Source: Acholeplasmatales bacterium (GTDB lineage Bacteria; Bacillota_I; Bacilli_A; Acholeplasmatales; Anaeroplasmataceae). Taken from it: a DNA stretch of 8,352 nucleotides. How positions within the stretch are numbered: position 1 is the first letter of the stretch; the number at the start of each line of letters is the position of its first letter. Below are positions 17 through 8,352 of this stretch, in pieces. The notes below the pieces were generated by a model. It was not told where the DNA came from. It did not search any database and was given only the letters and a program-made list of their open reading frames with translations. The position numbers and the translations under genes are program-made. The stretch lies in NCBI GenBank assembly GCA_024681175.1, contig JAILBI010000256.1:1-8352 (forward strand), in the 5' to 3' direction.

Positions 17-42
17 ATTTATTCATAATTTTTATATCAAAA

Positions 43-56
43 TGCAACATATTGCA
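43..56. promoter_or_regulatory. Distal HipB-type operator (O1)
   Basis: A perfect inverted repeat, TGCAA-CATA-TTGCA, five-base arms with a four-base spacer. It lies about 100 bases before the hipB start. The core gcaacatattgcata occurs again at 85-99, exactly 41 bases further on, which is close to four helical turns, so two bound dimers would face the same side of the DNA. HipB-family repressors are known to bind paired palindromes upstream of their own operon. That these are HipB sites is inferred from position, symmetry and duplication. Confidence 0.6.
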
Positions 57-83
57 TATTATACAATAATTTTACTAATAATA

Positions 84-97
84 AGCAACATATTGCA
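84..97. promoter_or_regulatory. Proximal HipB-type operator (O2)
   Basis: Second copy of the palindrome, here GCAA-CATA-TTGC with perfect four-base arms; the outermost pair differs from O1. It overlaps the candidate -35 hexamer TTGCAT (93-98) of the hipB promoter, so a bound repressor would block RNA polymerase. The 15-base identity with O1 inside otherwise unconstrained A+T-rich sequence makes chance unlikely. Confidence 0.6.
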
Positions 98-121
98 TAA
101 TATATTAAAATGTAGTAAAAT
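93..121 (+). promoter_or_regulatory. Candidate hipBA promoter
   Basis: TTGCAT (93-98) and TAAAAT (116-121) are separated by 17 bases, a good sigma-A spacing. Transcription would start near 128, leaving only about a dozen bases before the ATG at 141 but still including the ribosome binding site. An alternative pairing uses TTTACT (71-76) with CATAAT (96-101) at a looser 19-base spacing and gives a longer leader. In both cases O2 overlaps a promoter element. In A+T-rich DNA such hexamers are common, so the exact start is uncertain. Confidence 0.4.
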
Positions 122-128
122 ATCTTTG

Positions 129-135
129 AAGGTGA
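129..135 (+). promoter_or_regulatory. Ribosome binding site fixing the hipB start
   Basis: AAGGTGA lies five bases before the ATG at 141. The upstream in-frame ATG at 42 has no such site, and its first codons run through both operators and the promoter. This decides the start at 141. Confidence 0.75.
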
Positions 136-140
136 TATAT

Positions 141-467
141 ATGAGAATTGATAATTTATATAATATGGATGTTATTTTAAAGGAAATAGGAAGAAGAATA
201 AGAGAATATAGAATAGGTTTATCTATTACTCAAAATGATTTTGCCAAAAAAGTGGGAGTATCAACTAGAACTATAAGTAGCATTGAAAATGGCTTAGATA
301 CGAGCTTTTCTACAATAATAAGAGTATTAGATGGCTTAAAGCTTATAACAAATTTAAATTTATTGGTTCCCGAAAAAGAAGAATATATCATTCAAGAGCA
401 TACTGAGAAAAAAAGATATAAAAAATCAAATAAAAAATCAGAATGGAAGTGGGGCGATGAGAAATGA
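141..467 (+). CDS. hipB: HipB-like XRE-family antitoxin / operon repressor
   Basis: A 108-residue cytoplasmic DNA-binding protein. A Cro/C1-type helix-turn-helix spans about residues 16-70. Its recognition core contains the family pattern LSITQNDFAKKVGVS (27-41) followed by TISSIENG (44-51). The C-terminal third is short, strongly basic and ends in WKWGDEK. The stop overlaps the hipA start (ATGA at 464-467), so the two are translationally coupled. In known HipBA systems HipB binds HipA, neutralises it, and represses the operon through palindromic operators, and two such palindromes lie just upstream. The frame is open back to an ATG at 42, but the start at 141 is preferred because of its ribosome binding site. 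Met9 (165) is a weaker alternative. The assignment rests on the XRE fold and the hipA neighbour. Confidence 0.85.
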   Translation: MRIDNLYNMDVILKEIGRRIREYRIGLSITQNDFAKKVGVSTRTISSIENGLDTSFSTIIRVLDGLKLITNLNLLVPEKEEYIIQEHTEKKRYKKSNKKSEWKWGDEK

Positions 468-1750
468 TTAAAGCAATAGTGAAAATGTGGGATACAAAAA
501 TTGGAGAAGTAACACAATTAGATGATGGCTATTGCATATTTAGTTATGATAAAGATTTTTTAAGATCAAATATACAAATATCCCCAATATATATGCCTCT
601 TTCAAATAATGAATATATTTTTAGAGATTTATCATATAAAACATTTTTAGGATTACCAGGGCTTTTGGCTGATTCACTTCCAGATAAATTTGGCACATCT
701 ATTTTAGCCGATTGGCTAGCTACAGATGGTAGAACCATTGATGACTTTGGTCCTGTAGAAAGATTATTATATATAGGCACAAGAGGCTTAGGAGCACTTG
801 AATATTTTCCTTCATATATAAAAAAAGAAACTAGTACAAATATCTATTTAGATAGAATTGTTGATTTATGTAATGATATATTAAATTCAGATAAGCATCT
901 TGGCGCTAAAGAAATGGATTTAAGAAATTTAATTAAGGTAGGAACATCAGCAGGTGGTGCAAGAGCAAAAGCAATTGTTGCCTATAATAGAGAACTTGAT
1001 AAATTTAAATCTGGTCAAATAGATGCAGGAGAAGGATATGACTATTATATTTTAAAATTTGACGGCATAACTAAAAATAAAGATAAAGACAAAATTGATT
1101 CTATTTACGCAACTAGAATAGAATATGCTTACTACTTAATGGCAATAAATTCAGGAATTAATATGTCTCCATCAGAATTGTTAATTAGAGATGATAAATA
1201 TCATTTTATGACAAAAAGATTTGATAGATATATTGACAATTTAGGTAATATGAAAAAAATTCATATGCAATCTTTATGTGCAATTAATCATTTAGCATTT
1301 GATAAAACAAGAATTTTTGGATATGAACAAACTGCCCAAATAATGAAAAAAATGGATATTGGTCAATCTGAAATAGAACAATTTTTTAGAAGAATGGTAT
1401 TTAATATTATGGTAAGAAATCAAGATGATCATGTCAAAAATATTTCATTTTTAATGGATAAAAATGGAAATTGGAGTCTTTCACCAGCATATGATATTAC
1501 ATATATGTATGATCCTACTGGCAAATGGACAAATGAACATCAAATGCTAGTAAATGGTAAAAGTAGTGATATTAATTTAAATGATATTTTTTCTGCAGGA
1601 AAAAACATGAATATTAGTGATATAAAAATGAAAAAAATCATTGAAGAAGTAAAAAATGAAATAAAGAAATTTGATTTTTATGCTTCAAAAGCTTTTCTTC
1701 CTAAAGAAATAATTGATGAAATTAAAAATAGTTTTGAATTATTAGATTAA
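464..1750 (+). CDS. hipA: HipA-family Ser/Thr kinase toxin
   Basis: A 428-residue protein, close to the usual HipA length (about 440), full length by motif content. Residues 1 to about 110 form the N-terminal HipA-coupling region. The glycine-rich phosphate loop VGTSAGGARAKA is at 159-170, and Ser162 sits where E. coli HipA autophosphorylates (Ser150). KRFDR is at 251-255, the catalytic loop RNQDDHVKN at 318-326, and the metal-binding SPAYDIT at 340-346. All key residues are present, so the kinase is expected to be active. HipA proteins phosphorylate a translation component (Glu-tRNA synthetase in E. coli) and cause growth arrest; the target here is unknown. The gene overlaps hipB by four bases and is followed at once by an intrinsic terminator, so hipBA is its own transcription unit. 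The sequence gives no sign of decay. Confidence 0.93.
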   Translation: MIKAIVKMWDTKIGEVTQLDDGYCIFSYDKDFLRSNIQISPIYMPLSNNEYIFRDLSYKTFLGLPGLLADSLPDKFGTSILADWLATDGRTIDDFGPVERLLYIGTRGLGALEYFPSYIKKETSTNIYLDRIVDLCNDILNSDKHLGAKEMDLRNLIKVGTSAGGARAKAIVAYNRELDKFKSGQIDAGEGYDYYILKFDGITKNKDKDKIDSIYATRIEYAYYLMAINSGINMSPSELLIRDDKYHFMTKRFDRYIDNLGNMKKIHMQSLCAINHLAFDKTRIFGYEQTAQIMKKMDIGQSEIEQFFRRMVFNIMVRNQDDHVKNISFLMDKNGNWSLSPAYDITYMYDPTGKWTNEHQMLVNGKSSDINLNDIFSAGKNMNISDIKMKKIIEEVKNEIKKFDFYASKAFLPKEIIDEIKNSFELLD

Positions 1751-1760
1751 ATAATTAAAG

Positions 1761-1790
1761 ACCTTTAAGAGTGTTCTTAAAGGTTTTTTT
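1761..1790 (+). terminator. Intrinsic terminator of hipBA
   Basis: A perfect 10-base-pair stem, ACCTTTAAGA and TCTTAAAGGT, with a GTGT loop, followed by an uninterrupted run of seven T (1784-1790). It begins ten bases after the hipA stop and separates hipBA from the sigma-factor operon. Confidence 0.9.
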
Positions 1791-1857: not shown

Positions 1858-1864
1858 ATTAATG

Positions 1865-1885
1865 CACCCAAAAAGGGTGATTTTT
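1865..1885 (+). terminator. Leader hairpin with T-run (attenuator or terminator)
   Basis: CACCC (1865-1869) pairs with GGGTG (1875-1879) across an A5 loop, then A and five T follow. Four of the five pairs are G-C, which stands out in this A+T-rich gap. It lies between the hipBA terminator and the sigma-gene ribosome binding site, with no gene before it that needs ending. It could be a second stop for read-through from hipA, a 5' stabilising hairpin, or an attenuator of the operon. Confidence 0.45.
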
Positions 1886-1912
1886 AGTCTTATTAAGTGA
1901 AGAGGGTAAAAT

Positions 1913-2413
1913 ATGAGTTTAGAAAAGGATGTTAATATAAATAGTGATCTAGATAAACTATTTGAGAAGTATTACAAGACATATTCTAAACTTGTTTATT
2001 TCGTTGTCAATCGATTAATTGAGGATGAAATAGAAGCAGAGGATTTAACTAATGAAGTATTTCTTAATTTTTTTGAAAAATATAAAAATGAAAAAATTAG
2101 GAATGTCAAAGGGTATTTGACTGCTTCAGCAAGAAATATGTCTATAACATTTTTGAATAAAAAGAATAAGATGGTTATTGATAATGAATATATTAATAAT
2201 CTATCTGATAATAATGAAAAAAGTTATTATCATGAGCTTATAAAATCATTTAAAAAGCTATTAAATGATCTTGAATTAGAAATTGTTATAGATCATATTG
2301 TTTATGATGTAAAGCTTTCAACAATTGCAAAAGAGAAGGGTGTATCAAATAATACAATAAAAAGTATATACCGTAGAGCACTTAATAAATTAAAGAAAGG
2401 TCTTAATTTATAA
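1913..2413 (+). CDS. ECF-type RNA polymerase sigma factor
   Basis: A 166-residue sigma-70 family protein of the small two-domain ECF type. Region 2 spans about residues 17-85: region 2.2 carries EAEDLTNEVFLNFF (41-54), and the DNA-melting/-10-binding part carries VKGYLTASARNMSITFLNK (65-83). After an acidic linker (about 86-112), region 4 spans about 113-164, with the helix-turn-helix LSTIAKEKGVSNNTIKS (135-151) and a basic tail. No region 1 or 3 is present, as usual for ECF factors. The start is supported by AGAGGG six bases upstream. The next gene begins two bases after its stop and encodes a membrane protein with a short cytoplasmic tail, the usual place for the cognate anti-sigma factor. 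It presumably directs RNA polymerase to this operon or to protease/envelope-stress genes, but no target promoter is evident here. Confidence 0.88.
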   Translation: MSLEKDVNINSDLDKLFEKYYKTYSKLVYFVVNRLIEDEIEAEDLTNEVFLNFFEKYKNEKIRNVKGYLTASARNMSITFLNKKNKMVIDNEYINNLSDNNEKSYYHELIKSFKKLLNDLELEIVIDHIVYDVKLSTIAKEKGVSNNTIKSIYRRALNKLKKGLNL

Positions 2414-2414
2414 T

Positions 2415-3875
2415 ATGAAAAAAATAGAAAAAATGATATTAAATAATATTGATTCAAATATTAATAAGGAATTTGATTATAAAAAAATAAGAAATAATCT
2501 TAATTTAGATAAAGATACATATACTATAAAAGAAGGAAGAAAAAGAAGAAAAATAATAATTGCATTATCTTCAGTTTTATTTGCATCACTAATTGTAAGC
2601 ATATCTTTTATCATAAGAGGTCTTAATGAGGATGAGATTAAACTTAATAGATTTGGTTTTTATGTAACAGAAGGATTTGAAGATCAAAATGATTTACCAA
2701 AAATAACTGATTTTACTGTTTTTCCTAATACATATTATGAAGATGAAATATATTCTCAAGAAGGATATAGAAATTTTGTAACAAATTATAATAATTTTGC
2801 TGGAAAATATGCCCAATATTTTAAAGAAAATAATGAAAAAGACAATTTAATTGTTTCACCAATTGAAACATATGAGGCATTATTAAAATTATCTCAAATG
2901 ACAACAAAAGGATATGAAGATTTAGATATTGCAACTAATGTAACAAGAGAAGAAATAGATAATTATTCATTTCCGTTCTTTCTTTCAAATCAAGCTATAT
3001 ATTTTTCTGAATATGTAATGATTCCTAATGAGGTCTGGAGAGCAAGTGAAGACGATATTACATTATGGATGAGCAAAAAATTCAAATTTAATGAAGAAGG
3101 AAAACCATATGCAGAAGGATGTAGGTTATATCGTTCAGATTTTAATTCTATTACGCTTCTTGAAGCGGACATTAATAAAAGTTTAAAAACAAATTCAATC
3201 AAAATAAATATGGGTGATTCCTTATTTATTAATAATTTATTTCATGTCGATGATGATTGGGAATATAGCTTTAATGTAGTTGAAACAAACCTTAATTTTT
3301 ATAATTATGATGGTACGAAATCATCAAAAAGATTCATTGTTTCAAATAAAAATGATTCTTTTGTAAAGGGATATGACACATTTGTATTGTTCACAATTAA
3401 AACAGTACATAATTATTATCTAAGATTTATGCTACCAAAAGATGGTTATAGTGTAGATGATATATTTACAAATGATAATATTAATTTAAGTAATAGAAAT
3501 ATTTTAGATGATTATGATTATCAAAAGAATATTGTGTTTCCTGAATTAAATTTAAAAAGTGAAATAAATACAGAAAGCTTTTTAAAATATTCAGGTATAG
3601 ATTTAGATAATAATATGCGAAATTTAACTTTATTTCCTGATTATTATAAATTAAGTAATATTTATGATGTAGCAAAAATAAATATTACCGCCGAAGGAAT
3701 AAAAATAAATTTAAAAGAATCCAATTATTCACCAAAGGAAGTATCAATGCCAGGTTCTAGGGTTTTAATTGATCAGCCTTTCGGATTTTTAATTACTACT
3801 AATGATAGTAAGACTTCAAAAATAGAAGATAGAGAAGATAAAATATTATTTTCAGGTATAGTAAATAAATTATAG
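2415..3875 (+). CDS. Membrane-anchored serpin-domain protein, putative anti-sigma factor
   Basis: A 486-residue protein predicted N-in/C-out. Residues 1-46 are a charged cytoplasmic part ending in GRKRRK. A single membrane helix lies at about 47-69, and an extracellular domain follows. From about residue 118 on I recognise a divergent serpin by an ordered series of motifs: NLIVSPIETYEALLKLSQ (144-161, the SPLS helix region), GDSLFINNLFHVDDDWEYSF (267-286, the strand-3A NALYFKGxWxxxF region), RFMLPKDG (337-344), FPELNLKSE (375-383), VAKINITAEG (419-428, the reactive-loop hinge), DQPFGFLI (453-460) and ILFSGIVN (477-484). Length after the helix fits a whole serpin, though the region about 165-250 is poorly conserved. 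The hinge has bulky or charged residues (Ile429, Lys430, Ile431) where inhibitory serpins carry Thr/Glu/Ala, so classical inhibition is doubtful. The anti-sigma role is inferred from position directly after the sigma gene and from topology; there is no zinc-binding HxxxCxxC. It lacks a well-placed ribosome site (AAAGG is 14 bases away), suggesting translation coupled to the sigma gene. Confidence 0.72.
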   Translation: MKKIEKMILNNIDSNINKEFDYKKIRNNLNLDKDTYTIKEGRKRRKIIIALSSVLFASLIVSISFIIRGLNEDEIKLNRFGFYVTEGFEDQNDLPKITDFTVFPNTYYEDEIYSQEGYRNFVTNYNNFAGKYAQYFKENNEKDNLIVSPIETYEALLKLSQMTTKGYEDLDIATNVTREEIDNYSFPFFLSNQAIYFSEYVMIPNEVWRASEDDITLWMSKKFKFNEEGKPYAEGCRLYRSDFNSITLLEADINKSLKTNSIKINMGDSLFINNLFHVDDDWEYSFNVVETNLNFYNYDGTKSSKRFIVSNKNDSFVKGYDTFVLFTIKTVHNYYLRFMLPKDGYSVDDIFTNDNINLSNRNILDDYDYQKNIVFPELNLKSEINTESFLKYSGIDLDNNMRNLTLFPDYYKLSNIYDVAKINITAEGIKINLKESNYSPKEVSMPGSRVLIDQPFGFLITTNDSKTSKIEDREDKILFSGIVNKL

Positions 3876-3892
3876 AAAAGGGGGTATACTAT

Positions 3893-5305
3893 ATGAAAAA
3901 AATAGCGTTAGTTTTATCATTGTTTTTAAGTGTTTTCTTTTTAAATGTTTTAGCTTCATCCGCAGATGAATTTGAGGATGAGATTTTGTGCACATTCTTT
4001 GAAAATAAAGATAGTGTTGGAAGAACTATTTATAAATCAGAATGTACCTGCAATTATACTGAAATACAGGGAACTGATGAAGAAGAATTAGATTCTTTGG
4101 AAGGAATGAGTTTGAATCCTGGCGCTGGTATAAATAATATTATACCTAATGATAATAGAACTAGGATCACAAATGATAACCTTTATAATCAAAATCCATA
4201 TAATAAAGTTTGTATGATTGTTACAACTTTTGGTAATGATAATGTAACTTCATATGGAACTGGATTTTTAGTTGGGCCAAAAACAATAATGACTTCATGC
4301 CATAATTTATATCGACAAGGTGTAGGCTTTTACAATACTATTAGTGTTAAAATTGCTGAACATTATGATAATTCTGTTGGAACTTATGTGAATACTTATC
4401 AAGCATCTAATATAACAAATTATGAAATAGGTAATTATTGGTATTCAAATAATCCTGATGATGATTGGGCAATATTTAATTTAACAGGTAATGTATCTTT
4501 TCCTTATTTTTCAACAACATCAGAAGTTTTAAATAATAATGTTGTATTAAATACTTTAGGATATCAAGATGATTATAATCATGATCTTGGTATATCAAAT
4601 GGAAACGTTAATACTCCAGGTACTTATTCATTTAAGCATACCTGTGATACTACAGATCAAACATGCGGTGCTCCTATTAGAAATACATCAGGTAAAGTAG
4701 TAGGAATTGAATCGGATTATAATATTACAAATTATAATTATGGAAGTAAAATTTCAATTTATTTAATTGATAGAATTATGAATAGAATAAATGGTTCAGT
4801 AGTTGATAATGGTGTTCCTAACGATTTTGAATTATATGAAGATCAGTCAAGTGAATATACTCTTGAACACATAGTAACTGATGAAGATCCTATGTATTAT
4901 GAACAACCATATGAAGAAATATCTTTCTCTAATTTTGACAATTCTATTTATTATTATTTAAGCCTTGGATATAACACCTTGATGATTAAATATTCCCTTG
5001 ATTTAAGAGAAATAAATGATGGTTATCAAGAAATGTATGTTATGGATTATTCAGGAAATAATTTAGTTAATCCAATTCTTGATTTTGATTATGTCGAATA
5101 TGCGGTTGGAGATATTTATTCAAATTTCACATTTTATGCCGAAATTCCTTTAAATCAGCTTACAGATGATATAAGCATTTATTTAAGATTTGGCGCTAAT
5201 GGAAATTATGATGATGACTGGAAGTATAGGCATCTTTCATATAAATTTTATTTATCATATATGGATAGGGTATATAATGATTTGATTTGTGTGAATAATT
5301 TATGA
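3893..5305 (+). CDS. Secreted chymotrypsin-fold protease (V8/glutamyl-endopeptidase group) with Cys nucleophile
   Basis: A 470-residue exported protein. A signal peptide (residues 1 to about 24, basic start, hydrophobic core, ASSA end) is followed by a probable propeptide to about 82. The protease domain runs about 83-300 and matches S1B glutamyl endopeptidases in order: NDNRTRITN (87-95), GTGFLVGPKTIMTSCH with His137, DDDWAIFNL with Asp191, and DTTDQTCGAPI with Cys258, then GKVVGIES. The last block aligns without gaps to the family's GGxSGSPV block, so Cys258 (codon TGC, 4664-4666) replaces the nucleophilic Ser. Glu273 sits where V8 has the His that binds a P1 glutamate. The rest (about 310-470) is an acidic, aromatic-rich, probably beta-rich domain I do not recognise; it could be a targeting or binding module. 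AAAAGGGGG eight bases upstream is the strongest ribosome site in the operon, so this may be its most translated product. Its stop overlaps the next gene (ATGA). It could be a Cys-type protease or an inactive binding protein. Confidence 0.82.
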   Translation: MKKIALVLSLFLSVFFLNVLASSADEFEDEILCTFFENKDSVGRTIYKSECTCNYTEIQGTDEEELDSLEGMSLNPGAGINNIIPNDNRTRITNDNLYNQNPYNKVCMIVTTFGNDNVTSYGTGFLVGPKTIMTSCHNLYRQGVGFYNTISVKIAEHYDNSVGTYVNTYQASNITNYEIGNYWYSNNPDDDWAIFNLTGNVSFPYFSTTSEVLNNNVVLNTLGYQDDYNHDLGISNGNVNTPGTYSFKHTCDTTDQTCGAPIRNTSGKVVGIESDYNITNYNYGSKISIYLIDRIMNRINGSVVDNGVPNDFELYEDQSSEYTLEHIVTDEDPMYYEQPYEEISFSNFDNSIYYYLSLGYNTLMIKYSLDLREINDGYQEMYVMDYSGNNLVNPILDFDYVEYAVGDIYSNFTFYAEIPLNQLTDDISIYLRFGANGNYDDDWKYRHLSYKFYLSYMDRVYNDLICVNNL

Positions 5306-6882
5306 GATTTAAAGATTATATTTATACATCAAGAAAGATGTATGGAACAAAAAATATTATATTTATAATAATTGGATTCATATTTTCCTTATCTATTATT
5401 TTTTCAATCATATTCATTTCCTATCAGTTTAGATATGGAATTGTAGATACCATTAATAATGATTACCCAGAATATGATTCAATGTATATTAAAGATAATC
5501 ATAGAAAATCACTAAATTATGATTATGATGAATATAAAAATAAATATGGAATAGATGAATTGGTTTCAACTTTGTTTGTGTGGCCAAATCGTAGTAGAAA
5601 CAAAGAGATTTACTTAGATGGTGAAGAAATTTCGTATGATTTTGAGGATGTTACACAGGAAGATGATTTTTATTCTTATTGGATATTTGATGATAACGTT
5701 TCAGATGATTTTTATACAAAATACGATGAAAAATATTTAAAAAGATATGGTAAAGGGGATGCAATATTAGCTGGTGAGTCATTTAAAGATGACAAGGATG
5801 AAATAATGGTATCTGATGCTTTTTGCAATCTTCTGGGAATAAATTATGATGACATCATTGGAAAAAAAGTCTCATATTTGATTTATTTTAATAAACAAAA
5901 TAATCAAGAAATATATGTAAAAGATGATGTGACTGGAGAATATAAAATATATAATAATTCTGATCCGATTGAATATTATGAATTTAAAGATTATAAAATT
6001 ATTGGCGTATATAATGATTTTATGGTAAATCGTACACCAAGCCGTAGGGAATCTGGTGCCACAAACACATATTTTATGGTGAAAAGAAGTAGTGTTGTAG
6101 ATCTTGATACTGCAAGAATGAGAAAATATGAAGATGGCTATGAATATTATGATAATGATAATTATTATTTTGATGAAGAACCATCTGCTGCGTTTGAGAA
6201 GATTTATAATAATCAAGGAATATGTCATATTGGTTCACCAGGAGAAAAAATCGGTAGAAATAGCGAAGAATCGAGTGATGATAAAAATGTTTTATTTTTA
6301 AATTATTGTTATTTCAATGATTTTGATAGTGGATATTCTTTTTATAAAATGATAAAAGATTCTAATAATTCAAGATCATTTGATTACTATGAGAATACAA
6401 GATTGGACCAGATTTATTCATTTATGCCATTTTATGAGCTTATTAGTAAAATTTTACTTATTAGTACAATTGTTTTAGTCTTGATAGCTATGATTAACAC
6501 ATTAAGGATAATGCAAAAATATATTAAAAATAGTATGGGATTTTTATCAATGTCTCTTGCAATTGGTATGAAGAAAAAATCTATATACATTCTTACATAT
6601 ATAGAGATGATTAAATCTGCATTTTATTCTTTGATACCTGCAGTATTAATATCACTTTCACCATGTATTTTATTTAATAATTATATGACTCAAAGACTTA
6701 GAATGCATGAAAAAGCGGTTGAAAATAGTTATATGTTTAATTTTAATGTTAGTTTTAGTTCATACCCTTGGATTATATTAATTTCTTTCTTTTCCTTTGT
6801 CTTAATAGTTTTCATACTCTCTTCAATAATTTTGAAAATTTCTGACAGGAAAATGTTGATTAATAGATTGAATGGAGAATAA
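5302..6882 (+). CDS. MacB/FtsX-like ABC transporter permease
   Basis: A 526-residue membrane protein with the four-helix MacB/FtsX plan. Helix 1 is at about 18-43, a very large extracellular domain spans about 44-378, and helices 2-4 lie at about 380-402, 428-458 and 490-512. The external domain holds the MacB-type pattern EIMVSDAFCNLLGI (167-180) then IIGKKVSY (185-192), and later YKIIGVYND (231-239). The segment MSLAIGMKKKSIYIL (417-431) before helix 3 is the cytoplasmic coupling stretch that contacts the ATPase in this family. Such transporters act as mechanotransmitters or exporters of peptides and lipids rather than as alternating-access pumps. The ATG overlaps the protease stop by four bases, so synthesis is coupled to the protease. 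The ATPase follows after two bases. The extracellular domain, about 330 residues rich in Asp and Tyr, is larger than in typical relatives and may bind an external partner. Confidence 0.85.
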   Translation: MRFKDYIYTSRKMYGTKNIIFIIIGFIFSLSIIFSIIFISYQFRYGIVDTINNDYPEYDSMYIKDNHRKSLNYDYDEYKNKYGIDELVSTLFVWPNRSRNKEIYLDGEEISYDFEDVTQEDDFYSYWIFDDNVSDDFYTKYDEKYLKRYGKGDAILAGESFKDDKDEIMVSDAFCNLLGINYDDIIGKKVSYLIYFNKQNNQEIYVKDDVTGEYKIYNNSDPIEYYEFKDYKIIGVYNDFMVNRTPSRRESGATNTYFMVKRSSVVDLDTARMRKYEDGYEYYDNDNYYFDEEPSAAFEKIYNNQGICHIGSPGEKIGRNSEESSDDKNVLFLNYCYFNDFDSGYSFYKMIKDSNNSRSFDYYENTRLDQIYSFMPFYELISKILLISTIVLVLIAMINTLRIMQKYIKNSMGFLSMSLAIGMKKKSIYILTYIEMIKSAFYSLIPAVLISLSPCILFNNYMTQRLRMHEKAVENSYMFNFNVSFSSYPWIILISFFSFVLIVFILSSIILKISDRKMLINRLNGE

Positions 6883-6884
6883 AT

Positions 6885-7568
6885 ATGATAATTCTTAATA
6901 ATATAAATAAGACCTATGAAAACAAAGATATCAAGGTGGAAGCACTGAAAAACATTAATTTAAAAATCGATAAAGGCCTTACTGTAATTTTAGGCAAAAG
7001 TGGCTCTGGCAAATCAACACTTATGAATTTAATAGGAGCTTTAGATAAACCAACATCTGGAGAAATATATTTTGATGATAAAAAAATTACTGATTTAAAA
7101 GATAATTATTTAGCTGTCTTTAGGAATAAAAATGTTGGATATATTTTCCAGTTTTTCTATCTTGAACCTCATCTAAAAGTTGTAGATAATATATGTTTGC
7201 CTCTTACTATTAATGGGATACCTAGAGCAGATAGAGAAGAAAAGGCCTTGAAATATCTTGAAATGCTTGGACTTAATTCAAAGGGTAATCAAATGACTGG
7301 AAAGCTTTCAGGTGGTGAGATGCAAAGGGTATGTATTGCAAGAGCGCTTATTAATGATCCTTTATGCATTTTAGCAGATGAACCAACAGGAAATCTTGAT
7401 AATGAAAATGCAATAGCTGTAATGGATTTATTGAAAAGTATTTCTAATAAAGGAAAAATTGTAATCCTTGTTACACATAATGAAGATTTTGCAAAGAAAT
7501 ATGCTGATAGAATAATAAGAATTGAAAATGGCCAAATCGTTGGTGATGAGATGAATGAAAATAATTGA
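6885..7568 (+). CDS. ABC transporter ATP-binding protein (MacB/LolD-like)
   Basis: A complete 227-residue cytoplasmic ATPase of the LolD/MacB/FtsE type. It has Walker A GKSGSGKST (37-45), Q-loop Gln89 in GYIFQ, signature LSGGE (141-145), Walker B CILADEP with Glu166, D-loop NLD (170-172) and switch His198 in VTHNE. All residues needed for ATP hydrolysis are present. It begins two bases after the first permease stop, with TGGAGA six bases before its ATG. Its 3' end overlaps the second permease gene by 14 bases. One ATPase between two FtsX-like permeases suggests a homodimeric ATPase driving a heterodimeric permease. The substrate cannot be read from this subunit. Confidence 0.96.
   Translation: MIILNNINKTYENKDIKVEALKNINLKIDKGLTVILGKSGSGKSTLMNLIGALDKPTSGEIYFDDKKITDLKDNYLAVFRNKNVGYIFQFFYLEPHLKVVDNICLPLTINGIPRADREEKALKYLEMLGLNSKGNQMTGKLSGGEMQRVCIARALINDPLCILADEPTGNLDNENAIAVMDLLKSISNKGKIVILVTHNEDFAKKYADRIIRIENGQIVGDEMNENN
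7542..7550 (+). promoter_or_regulatory. Ribosome binding site inside the ATPase gene for the second permease
   Basis: GGTGATGAG lies four bases before the ATG at 7555, within the last codons of the ATPase gene. It supports the overlapping start of the second permease. Confidence 0.6.
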
Positions 7569-8352
7569 TTTAATAAAATTTACCCTTCTTCAAATAAAAT
7601 ATAATTTATTTAGATTTTTCATCACATCTTTATTGTTTTCATTATGTATATTTCTTATATCGTTTTCTTTAGAACAAGGATTTAGTGTTTCAAATAATTA
7701 CAAAAATGCATATGATGGTTATATATCATATCATGGATTTCATATATCATGTAAAACTAAGTATTATGAAGAAGACATAGATTTAATTAAAGATCATATA
7801 TTAAATACTAAAATAAATCTTATTGAAAAAACTACTTCATTTGAACTTGTTTATAATTATAATGATGGAGATAATATCAAAAATAATTATGAAGATTTAA
7901 TTGATGCATATTCATATTCAGAAAAAGTATTAAAAAATAGACAAGAAAAAGTTCCAGAATATAAATATATTTTTTCAAAAGAACGAGCAGTAGATGACTA
8001 TGATAAAGGGCTTGATAAAATAAATCTTGTAAGTATAGTTTGTATTTGCATTGCCATACTAACATTTATTATTTCATTACTTTTATTAAAAAGCAGTATT
8101 AATTATGCTGCAGATGATTACAACAAAATAGTATCAATTTTAATGGCATATGGAGCTAAAAAAAGAGAAATAAAATTCATTATTTTATTAAATATATTTT
8201 TAACATTAATAATTGGCTTAGGTATTTCATTTATCTTTCTTTTTATTTCATCATATATGAATGAAATTATAGAAAATATTTTTAAGCAAAGCCTTGCAGA
8301 TGATGTAAGAAATTATATTAAAAATAATAATTATAAATATATTTCATATAAT
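7555..8352 (+). CDS. Second FtsX-like ABC permease, truncated by window end
   Basis: An open frame from the ATG at 7555 to the last base, 266 codons without a stop; the 3' end is outside the window. It begins MKIIDLIKFTLLQIKYN, has helix 1 at about 20-38, an extracellular segment of only about 115 residues (39-157), helix 2 at about 158-178, the coupling stretch ILMAYGAKKREIKF (195-208), which is the usual FtsX/MacB pattern, and helix 3 at about 208-232. A fourth helix is expected beyond the edge. It overlaps the ATPase gene by 14 bases. It probably forms a heterodimer with the 526-residue permease, whose external domain is nearly three times larger, giving an asymmetric transporter. Continuation as a longer multi-helix protein cannot be excluded. 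Confidence 0.82.
   Translation, partial: MKIIDLIKFTLLQIKYNLFRFFITSLLFSLCIFLISFSLEQGFSVSNNYKNAYDGYISYHGFHISCKTKYYEEDIDLIKDHILNTKINLIEKTTSFELVYNYNDGDNIKNNYEDLIDAYSYSEKVLKNRQEKVPEYKYIFSKERAVDDYDKGLDKINLVSIVCICIAILTFIISLLLLKSSINYAADDYNKIVSILMAYGAKKREIKFIILLNIFLTLIIGLGISFIFLFISSYMNEIIENIFKQSLADDVRNYIKNNNYKYISYN

What the first reader, a model, noticed from the sequence alone, without database searches (positions are those of the whole stretch)
1913..8352. Sigma factor + membrane serpin + Cys-type secreted protease + ABC transporter in one operon
The gene order is ECF sigma, transmembrane serpin in the anti-sigma slot, secreted trypsin-fold protease, then a MacB-like transporter. Gaps are 1 and 17 bases, then a 4-base overlap, 2 bases and a 14-base overlap. 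Protease and serpin are the natural enzyme/inhibitor pair, so their co-location with a sigma switch suggests proteolysis sensing or self-controlled protease secretion. I know of sigma/anti-sigma pairs with carbohydrate-binding or enzyme ectodomains (RsgI proteins of Clostridium thermocellum) and of secreted gut bacterial serpins, but not of this combination.
Basis: partly seen in the sequence, partly recalled or inferred. Interest (0 to 1): 0.87.

Follow-up and report, generated by a model that had tools for sequence, protein, structure and literature searches.

The report
Serpin-tipped anti-sigma switch with protease cargo
A bacterial gene switch whose outside sensor is built like a serpin, a fold usually used to trap proteases, turns up again and again in uncultured bacteria; in this window it sits in front of a secreted protease that carries the tail domain of pore-forming proteins, which suggests a way to sense or answer protease attack at the cell surface.

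Summary
It is a composite of two modules that recur apart. Trees and sigma similarity say that serpins were joined to sigma partners more than once, so the design recurs, not one inherited unit. Module 2: the protease's C-terminal domain is that of secreted MACPF proteins beside MacB-like ABC genes and of one thiol-cytolysin-like protein. The protease next to the serpin is seen only here, and this serpin's hinge has 0 of 7 small residues, against 3-6 of 7 in 24 of 24 aligned relatives, so a simple enzyme/inhibitor pair is unlikely. Most likely: a protease-responsive sigma switch that makes more of itself plus co-transcribed cargo. The biochemistry is inferred; the window promoter is only a weak match; both structure predictions failed.

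The parts
1761..1790 (+). 10-bp stem-loop followed by a T run between hipA and the sigma gene: likely terminator of the upstream hipBA unit
   Evidence: sequence directly; the stem is listed, on the minus strand only,
1863..1893 (+). candidate ECF-type promoter TGCACC-N18-GTCTTAT, 19 bases before the sigma start; overlaps a short inverted repeat (1865-1879)
   Evidence: read by eye at the place of the relatives' TGTCAC-N18-GTTTTAT; the relatives' motif itself is not found in the window with up to 3 mismatches; inverted repeat
1913..2413 (+). ECF-type sigma factor, 166 aa
   Evidence: PF04542, PF04545; TIGR02937 3.2e-18
2415..3875 (+). candidate membrane anti-sigma factor with serpin ectodomain, 486 aa
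   Evidence: PF00079 8e-11; helix position and N-terminal domain
2415..2558 (+). cytoplasmic anti-sigma-type domain, residues 1-48
   Evidence: best of 355 sequences (13.2 bits) against a profile from 30 non-serpin proteins in the same slot
2559..2615 (+). transmembrane helix, about residues 49-67
   Evidence: hydropathy
2784..3815 (+). serpin domain, residues 124-467
3696..3719 (+). reactive-loop hinge from the invariant P15 Gly428: GIKINLKE, non-canonical
3893..5305 (+). secreted trypsin-fold protease, 470 aa, N-terminal signal peptide (by eye)
4256..4708 (+). protease domain, residues 122-272; His137 and Cys258 as candidate catalytic residues
4868..5302 (+). C-terminal domain shared with MACPF and related secreted proteins
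5302..6882 (+). FtsX-type permease 1, 526 aa
   Evidence: PF02687 5.7e-7
6885..7568 (+). MacB/LolD-type ABC ATPase, 227 aa
   Evidence: 52% identical to the ATPase beside a stand-alone C-terminal-domain protein in L001
7555..8352 (+). FtsX-type permease 2, cut by the window end
   Evidence: PF02687 1e-6

Best explanation
The first two genes are a sigma/anti-sigma switch whose membrane anti-sigma factor uses a serpin domain as its outside sensor. Shown here: the architecture recurs, and the membrane helix and N-terminal domain lie where they lie in non-serpin proteins of the same slot. Inferred: the N-terminal 48 residues hold the sigma factor; cutting of the exposed reactive loop by a protease (or docking of one) changes the serpin domain and starts regulated proteolysis through the membrane, as in RsgI; freed sigma then transcribes its own operon. 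In the other loci the unit is mostly just sigma plus serpin, so the switch would replace the serpin that proteases use up. In the window the switch has cargo: a secreted Cys-type protease carrying a surface- or membrane-binding C-terminal domain, and a MacB-like transporter of the kind that accompanies MACPF proteins with that domain. Because the protease has its own signal peptide, the transporter more likely protects the producer or handles the protein at the membrane than exports it.
For: 23 sigma-serpin loci in 20 genomes besides the window. Of 88 serpin genes scored, 22 of 25 with an internal helix are sigma-linked and 0 of 63 others, Fisher p 7.6e-18, relatedness not corrected, rule set after a first look; the three exceptions are L108, L113 and L230, and L230 is sigma-linked by eye. 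The design arose more than once: on a tree of 48 serpin domains the 17 sigma-linked rows need 5 changes, well-supported branches force at least 3 (one gain and two losses would also be 3), 0 of 200 bootstrap trees have 1. The 30 loci returned for the window's sigma factor (matches in 86 of 160 order genomes) all have their most hydrophobic early stretch at residues 43-61 of the next protein, 28 of 30 above the helix threshold, and the window's N-terminus is the best of 355 sequences against their profile (13.2 bits; best of 300 shuffles of the first 44 residues 7.9; best of 31 secreted serpins 8.9). TGTCAC-N18-GTTTTAT lies exactly before the sigma gene in 6 relatives and before the sigma-serpin remnant of G133; in the eighth genome (G132) the contig ends inside the gene. 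C-terminal domain tied to MACPF and MacB-like ABC genes.
Against: No experiment. The window's hinge is non-canonical, so loop insertion may not occur in this member. The relatives' promoter motif is not found in the window with up to 3 mismatches; the window site was picked by eye, and the looser motif, written to include it, is in 9 of 23 upstream regions. The window's sigma factor is closest to sigma factors with non-serpin partners (best 3e-30), not to serpin-linked ones (best 1e-21; for the six order loci tested E 0.005 to 0.066), so the relatives' behaviour need not carry over. Of 24 sigma-linked serpins only the window and L025 beat the best shuffle in the anti-sigma-domain test, and so does one secreted serpin, L084. 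Switch and protease together are known from one window. Confidence was lowered from a planned 0.5 to 0.45 after the checks.
Confidence: 0.45

Rival explanations
1. The membrane serpin is a true inhibitor of the protease encoded next to it; it protects the producer and its loss reports free protease.
For: Adjacent genes with a 17-base gap; serpins are known to trap trypsin-fold enzymes and some cysteine proteases (recalled).
Against: Hinge P14-P8 is IKINLKE, 0 of 7 small residues and 3 charged, against 3-6 of 7 small in 24 of 24 aligned relatives. No relative of the protease in the 23 other sigma-serpin loci.
Confidence: 0.12
2. The serpin fold is only a scaffold: the ectodomain binds a non-protease signal (peptide, glycan, envelope damage), as sensor domains of other anti-sigma factors do, and the protease and transporter are simply its regulon.
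For: Similar sigma factors in this order have non-serpin membrane partners (6 partners scanned with Pfam, no serpin); the window hinge is degenerate.
Against: 15 of 15 sigma-linked relatives aligned (of 23) keep mostly or partly small hinge residues, 3-6 of 7, and the P15 glycine, which a passive scaffold would not need. Repeated joining of serpins, rather than any other fold, to sigma partners also speaks for a serpin-specific property.
Confidence: 0.28
3. An envelope-stress operon of the antimicrobial-peptide type: the ABC genes are a BceAB/MacB-like detoxifier, the protease degrades peptides, and the sigma pair senses damage.
For: The ATPase scores best with LolD, darobactin-export, MacB, FtsE and bacteriocin-export models, all below their cut-offs.
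Against: Related ATPases sit beside secreted proteins with the same C-terminal domain, mostly MACPF, though identity ranges of such and other ATPases overlap (38-52% and 24-39%).
Confidence: 0.13

Closest known systems
RsgI/SigI membrane anti-sigma factors (Clostridium thermocellum)
   Same: N-terminal cytoplasmic sigma-binding part, one membrane helix, exchangeable ectodomain; autocleavage, then RseP, then ClpXP (passages of PMC12203970 seen); carbohydrate-binding module as sensor (passage of PMC12484212)
   Different: ECF-type sigma rather than SigI; serpin ectodomain; no RsgI-family hit in the window protein
Secreted bacterial serpins (cellulosomal serpins of C. thermocellum; siropins; chloropin)
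   Same: same fold family
   Different: those are inhibitors outside the cell (passage of PMC12484212; search listing with abstract starts); here the serpin is membrane-tethered behind an anti-sigma-type domain
Bacterial MACPF/CDC proteins
   Same: the C-terminal domain of the window protease is also the C-terminal domain of MACPF proteins and of one Thiol_cytolysin protein
   Different: the pore-forming domain is replaced by a protease domain
Trypsin-fold cysteine proteases of viruses (TEV NIa type)
   Same: Cys at the nucleophile position (that this Cys is the TEV nucleophile is recalled)
   Different: bacterial, secreted, two-domain; sequence match weak (E 0.036)

Membership tests
ECF sigma / membrane anti-sigma pair | sigma regions 2 and 4 only, with a membrane protein encoded directly 3' | tested here: met
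ECF sigma / membrane anti-sigma pair | N-terminal domain binds and holds the sigma factor | not testable with these tools
   only sequence similarity to other N-termini in that slot, 13.2 bits
ECF sigma / membrane anti-sigma pair | autoregulated promoter | tested here: inconclusive
   clear motif in 7 relatives, one of them a remnant; not found in the window with up to 3 mismatches
RsgI | RsgI N-terminal domain and SigI partner | tested here: not met
   no RsgI family hit and an ECF-type sigma; it may work like an RsgI but is not filed as one
Serpin superfamily | serpin domain over nearly the whole profile | tested here: met
   profile 2-360 of 370, 8e-11, over the cut-off
Inhibitory serpins | P15 Gly and small residues at P14-P8 of the hinge (rule recalled) | tested here: not met
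   P15 Gly present, 0 of 7 small residues
Trypsin-fold (PA clan) proteases | His, Asp and nucleophile in trypsin-fold order | tested here: inconclusive
   PF13365 1.5e-7; His137 and Cys258 read by eye, Asp not fixed among 189-191; activity not testable
MACPF/CDC proteins | MACPF or thiol-cytolysin pore domain | tested here: not met
   only the C-terminal domain is shared
MacB/LolD-type ABC systems | LolD-like ATPase with FtsX-type permeases | tested here: met
   no equivalog cut-off reached, so no named member

The most novel reading that the evidence does not exclude
The serpin's stored folding energy is the signalling step: a proteolytic cut of the loop drives loop insertion in the ectodomain of a membrane anti-sigma factor, which triggers release of sigma, so that a suicide inhibitor reports its own consumption and orders its replacement. 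Bacteria have built this several times by joining serpins to ECF sigma partners, and the window shows such a switch put in charge of a secreted protease with a pore-former's binding domain.
Probability: 0.3. Interest if true: 0.9.

Novelty: new variant of a known kind. Interest (0 to 1): 0.72.

Why it matters
If true, a serpin serves not only as an inhibitor but as the trigger of a transcription switch, which would answer what some bacterial serpins are for and give a direct test of how proteolysis outside a cell is read inside. Repeated joining of serpins to sigma partners would show that the fold is well suited to this. It also shows a domain of pore-forming proteins re-used to place a protease.

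Tried and rejected
Structure: serpin alone and protease with two relatives gave mean pLDDT 32.7 and 32.1; no fold search was run on them. Protein search (5.8 billion sequences): serpin and permease 1 found only themselves, the protease only P0002, which the tool lists as one 89% cluster; this tool misses distant relatives. Serpin scans of genome contigs and viral contigs found none. Protease against plasmids and phages at E up to 1: 3 and 2 records, best E 0.02. Regulon search: 29 matches of TGTCAC-N18-GTTTTAT with up to 1 mismatch in 8 genomes, 18 for the backwards control (sums over the table); 8 matches are exact, 7 at the sigma or remnant promoter and one elsewhere (G133 C21). Of the 22 sites not at these promoters 13 were looked at: 11 lie inside ORFs, one (the exact G133 site) has no ORF within 300 bases, one has an ORF 98 bases downstream; 9 were not looked at. 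So there is no evidence for a wide regulon. Idea that MACPF-ABC loci are run by ECF sigma pairs: no sigma label in the 18 loci with the domain shown. Idea of one inherited sigma-serpin unit: rejected. Idea of the serpin as inhibitor of the neighbouring protease: lowered. First version of the helix/sigma table (21 of 23 against 0 of 65) mis-scored L227; one search replaces it. Paper searches showed no report of a serpin anti-sigma factor or of this domain in the titles and abstract starts listed (lists were capped); most subscription journals are not held. Passages seen: PMC8233489 (the word sigma does not occur in its main text), PMC12203970, PMC10059941 (serpin and anti-sigma factor named as separate things), PMC12484212. 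All other papers: listing only.
Full report
1. The observation. A hipB/hipA pair lies upstream and ends in a stem-loop with a T run at 1761-1790, so the operon probably starts just before the sigma gene. No whole genome is held. Of 8 loci found for the ATPase in genome contigs the best is from an Acholeplasmatales MAG (L001, 52%), so the window probably comes from that neighbourhood of low-GC bacteria (inference).

2. Module one: sigma plus membrane serpin. Serpin searches covered 160 genomes of L001's order (20 with a match over the cut-off), 395 of its class (64 over the cut-off) and, with alignment A3, 392 of its phylum (52 with a match); the three sets overlap. Reading the neighbourhoods gives 23 sigma-serpin loci in 20 genomes besides the window: 7 loci in 7 of the 160 order genomes and 16 loci in 13 further genomes (G317 has three, G500 two). 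In an eighth order genome (G133: L033, L128) only a fused remnant of sigma start and serpin end is left. L228 is recognised as a serpin only by profile A3 (4.7e-13). Not all serpin matches had their surroundings fetched.

3. The link is specific to membrane serpins. One search took 89 distinct serpin genes (380 aa or more, start inside the contig; window left out) and dropped one at a contig edge. With a helix starting 36 or more residues from the longest start, 22 of 25 are sigma-linked; of the 63 others none is. Exceptions: L108 and L113, serpins of another type with a long insert, and L230, whose start was called inside the sigma gene and which is sigma-linked by eye. The rule was set after seeing the data and related genomes are not independent, so p 7.6e-18 is only a guide.

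4. Not one inherited unit. On a maximum-likelihood tree of 48 serpin domains (17 sigma-linked, 31 secreted) the sigma-linked rows need 5 changes; starred branches force at least 3 (which could be one gain and two losses), and 0 of 200 bootstrap trees make them one group. They are still clustered (shuffled mean 14.2 changes). The window row has a very long branch (2.61) and its place, among secreted serpins, is unsure. The window's sigma factor is closest to sigma factors with non-serpin partners (3e-30, L245) rather than serpin-linked ones (best 1e-21; 21 of 23 compared). So serpins seem to have been joined to sigma partners repeatedly, and the window may be its own case.

5. A swapped sensor on a common chassis. 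The 30 loci returned for the window's sigma factor all carry, next to the sigma gene, a protein whose most hydrophobic early stretch starts at residues 43-61; 28 of 30 pass the helix threshold, L255 and L273 do not. Six of these partners were scanned with Pfam and none has a serpin. The first 62 residues of the window serpin protein top 355 sequences against the profile of the 30 pre-helix parts. In two of the closest relatives (L277, L278) the pair is followed by a secreted protein with a C39-like peptidase match (E 4.6e-4, below the cut-off, and 2.8e-6, above it), so a secreted cysteine peptidase after such a pair may not be unique to the window.

6. Promoter. G102, G131, G134, G136, G137 and G138 have TGTCAC-N18-GTTTTAT exactly before the sigma gene, G133 before its remnant; in G132 the contig ends inside the sigma gene. 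The eight genomes hold one further exact site, without an ORF within 300 bases. So in these relatives the switch seems to act mainly on its own unit. Of 23 loci one serpin gene ends at the contig end, 7 are followed by an opposite-strand ORF and 15 by a same-strand ORF 27 bases or more away. The window's site TGCACC-N18-GTCTTAT has the same place and spacer but is a weak likeness: the relatives' motif is not found in the window with up to 3 mismatches. A loose pattern written after seeing the sequences is in 9 of 23 upstream regions, shuffled mean 0.06.

7. Reactive loop. P15 is Gly in 25 of 25 aligned serpins. P14-P8 holds 3-6 small residues of 7 in 24 of 24 relatives (15 sigma-linked, of 23 known; 9 secreted) and none in the window, which has three charged ones. 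The relatives could work by loop insertion; the window member probably does not inhibit in the classical way.

8. No protease elsewhere. BLASTP of the window protease and its protease domain against all ORFs of 60 aa or more in the 23 loci (236,497 bases) found nothing at E up to 0.01. Seven neighbouring genes scanned with Pfam include a GH10 enzyme, a flavodoxin, a repeat protein and an ankyrin protein, no peptidase.

9. Module two: the C-terminal domain. Residues 312-449 of the protease match a stand-alone secreted protein beside the L001 ATPase (E 3e-14). Searches with this domain matched 13 of 160 order genomes (E up to 0.01) and 18 of 395 class genomes (E up to 0.001). Architectures of the 24 genes that I could classify: 15 with a MACPF domain (7 by Pfam, 1, 7 by my own MACPF profile), one with a Thiol_cytolysin domain (L184), five stand-alone proteins (L001, L065, L066, L175, L177), two LRR proteins (L187 by Pfam; L067 by eye), and one with two copies and a sub-threshold CHAT match (L176). 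Left out: weak or broken matches in G071, G111, G122, G440 and four further pieces in G001 and G152. By motif scan and eye, MacB-like ABC genes adjoin 12 of the 15 MACPF genes (of the other three, two lie at contig ends and L183 has none of this type) and 4 of the 5 stand-alone ones, once divergently. The window ATPase is 38-52% identical to ten such ATPases and 24-39% to four ABC ATPases from sigma-serpin neighbourhoods; the ranges overlap. The protease fusion itself is known only from the window and P0002.

10. Mechanism and limits. Shown: gene order, recurrence, domain make-up, the relatives' promoter motif, the hinge. Inferred: sigma binding, protease sensing, regulated proteolysis, autoregulation in the window, and the roles of the C-terminal domain and the transporter. 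Order, class and phylum are those of L001's genome and are not named by the tool. No function was tested.

Noticed in passing
window 42-1750: hipB/hipA-type pair (PF01381; PF13657 and PF07804) upstream on the same strand, with a 4-base overlap.
   Followed up: no
L184 1429-3030 (-): Thiol_cytolysin domain protein (PF01289 1.3e-34) that ends in the same C-terminal domain as the window protease, in a genome (G177) that also has a sigma-serpin pair elsewhere.
   Followed up: partly
L277 574-3641, L278 5449-8393: Sigma, membrane protein, then a secreted protein with a C39-like peptidase match: same layout as the window with other parts.
   Followed up: partly
L033 and L128 (G133): Remnant ORF with a sigma-like start fused to a serpin end, behind an exact TGTCAC-N18-GTTTTAT site.
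   Followed up: no
L107-L113: Serpins of 524-580 aa whose profile match is split by a long insert; two of them (L108, L113) have an internal helix and no sigma gene.
   Followed up: no
L176 (G223): Secreted protein with two copies of the C-terminal domain and a sub-threshold CHAT (caspase-like) match, E 0.0014.
   Followed up: no
L275 3789-9744 (G328): MacB-like ABC gene 192 bases before a sigma-serpin pair, and a GH10 glycosidase lipoprotein after it.
   Followed up: partly
L123-L127: A HU-like gene (by eye) follows the sigma-serpin pair in several related genomes, with an ankyrin-repeat gene (Pfam in L125) behind it.
   Followed up: no
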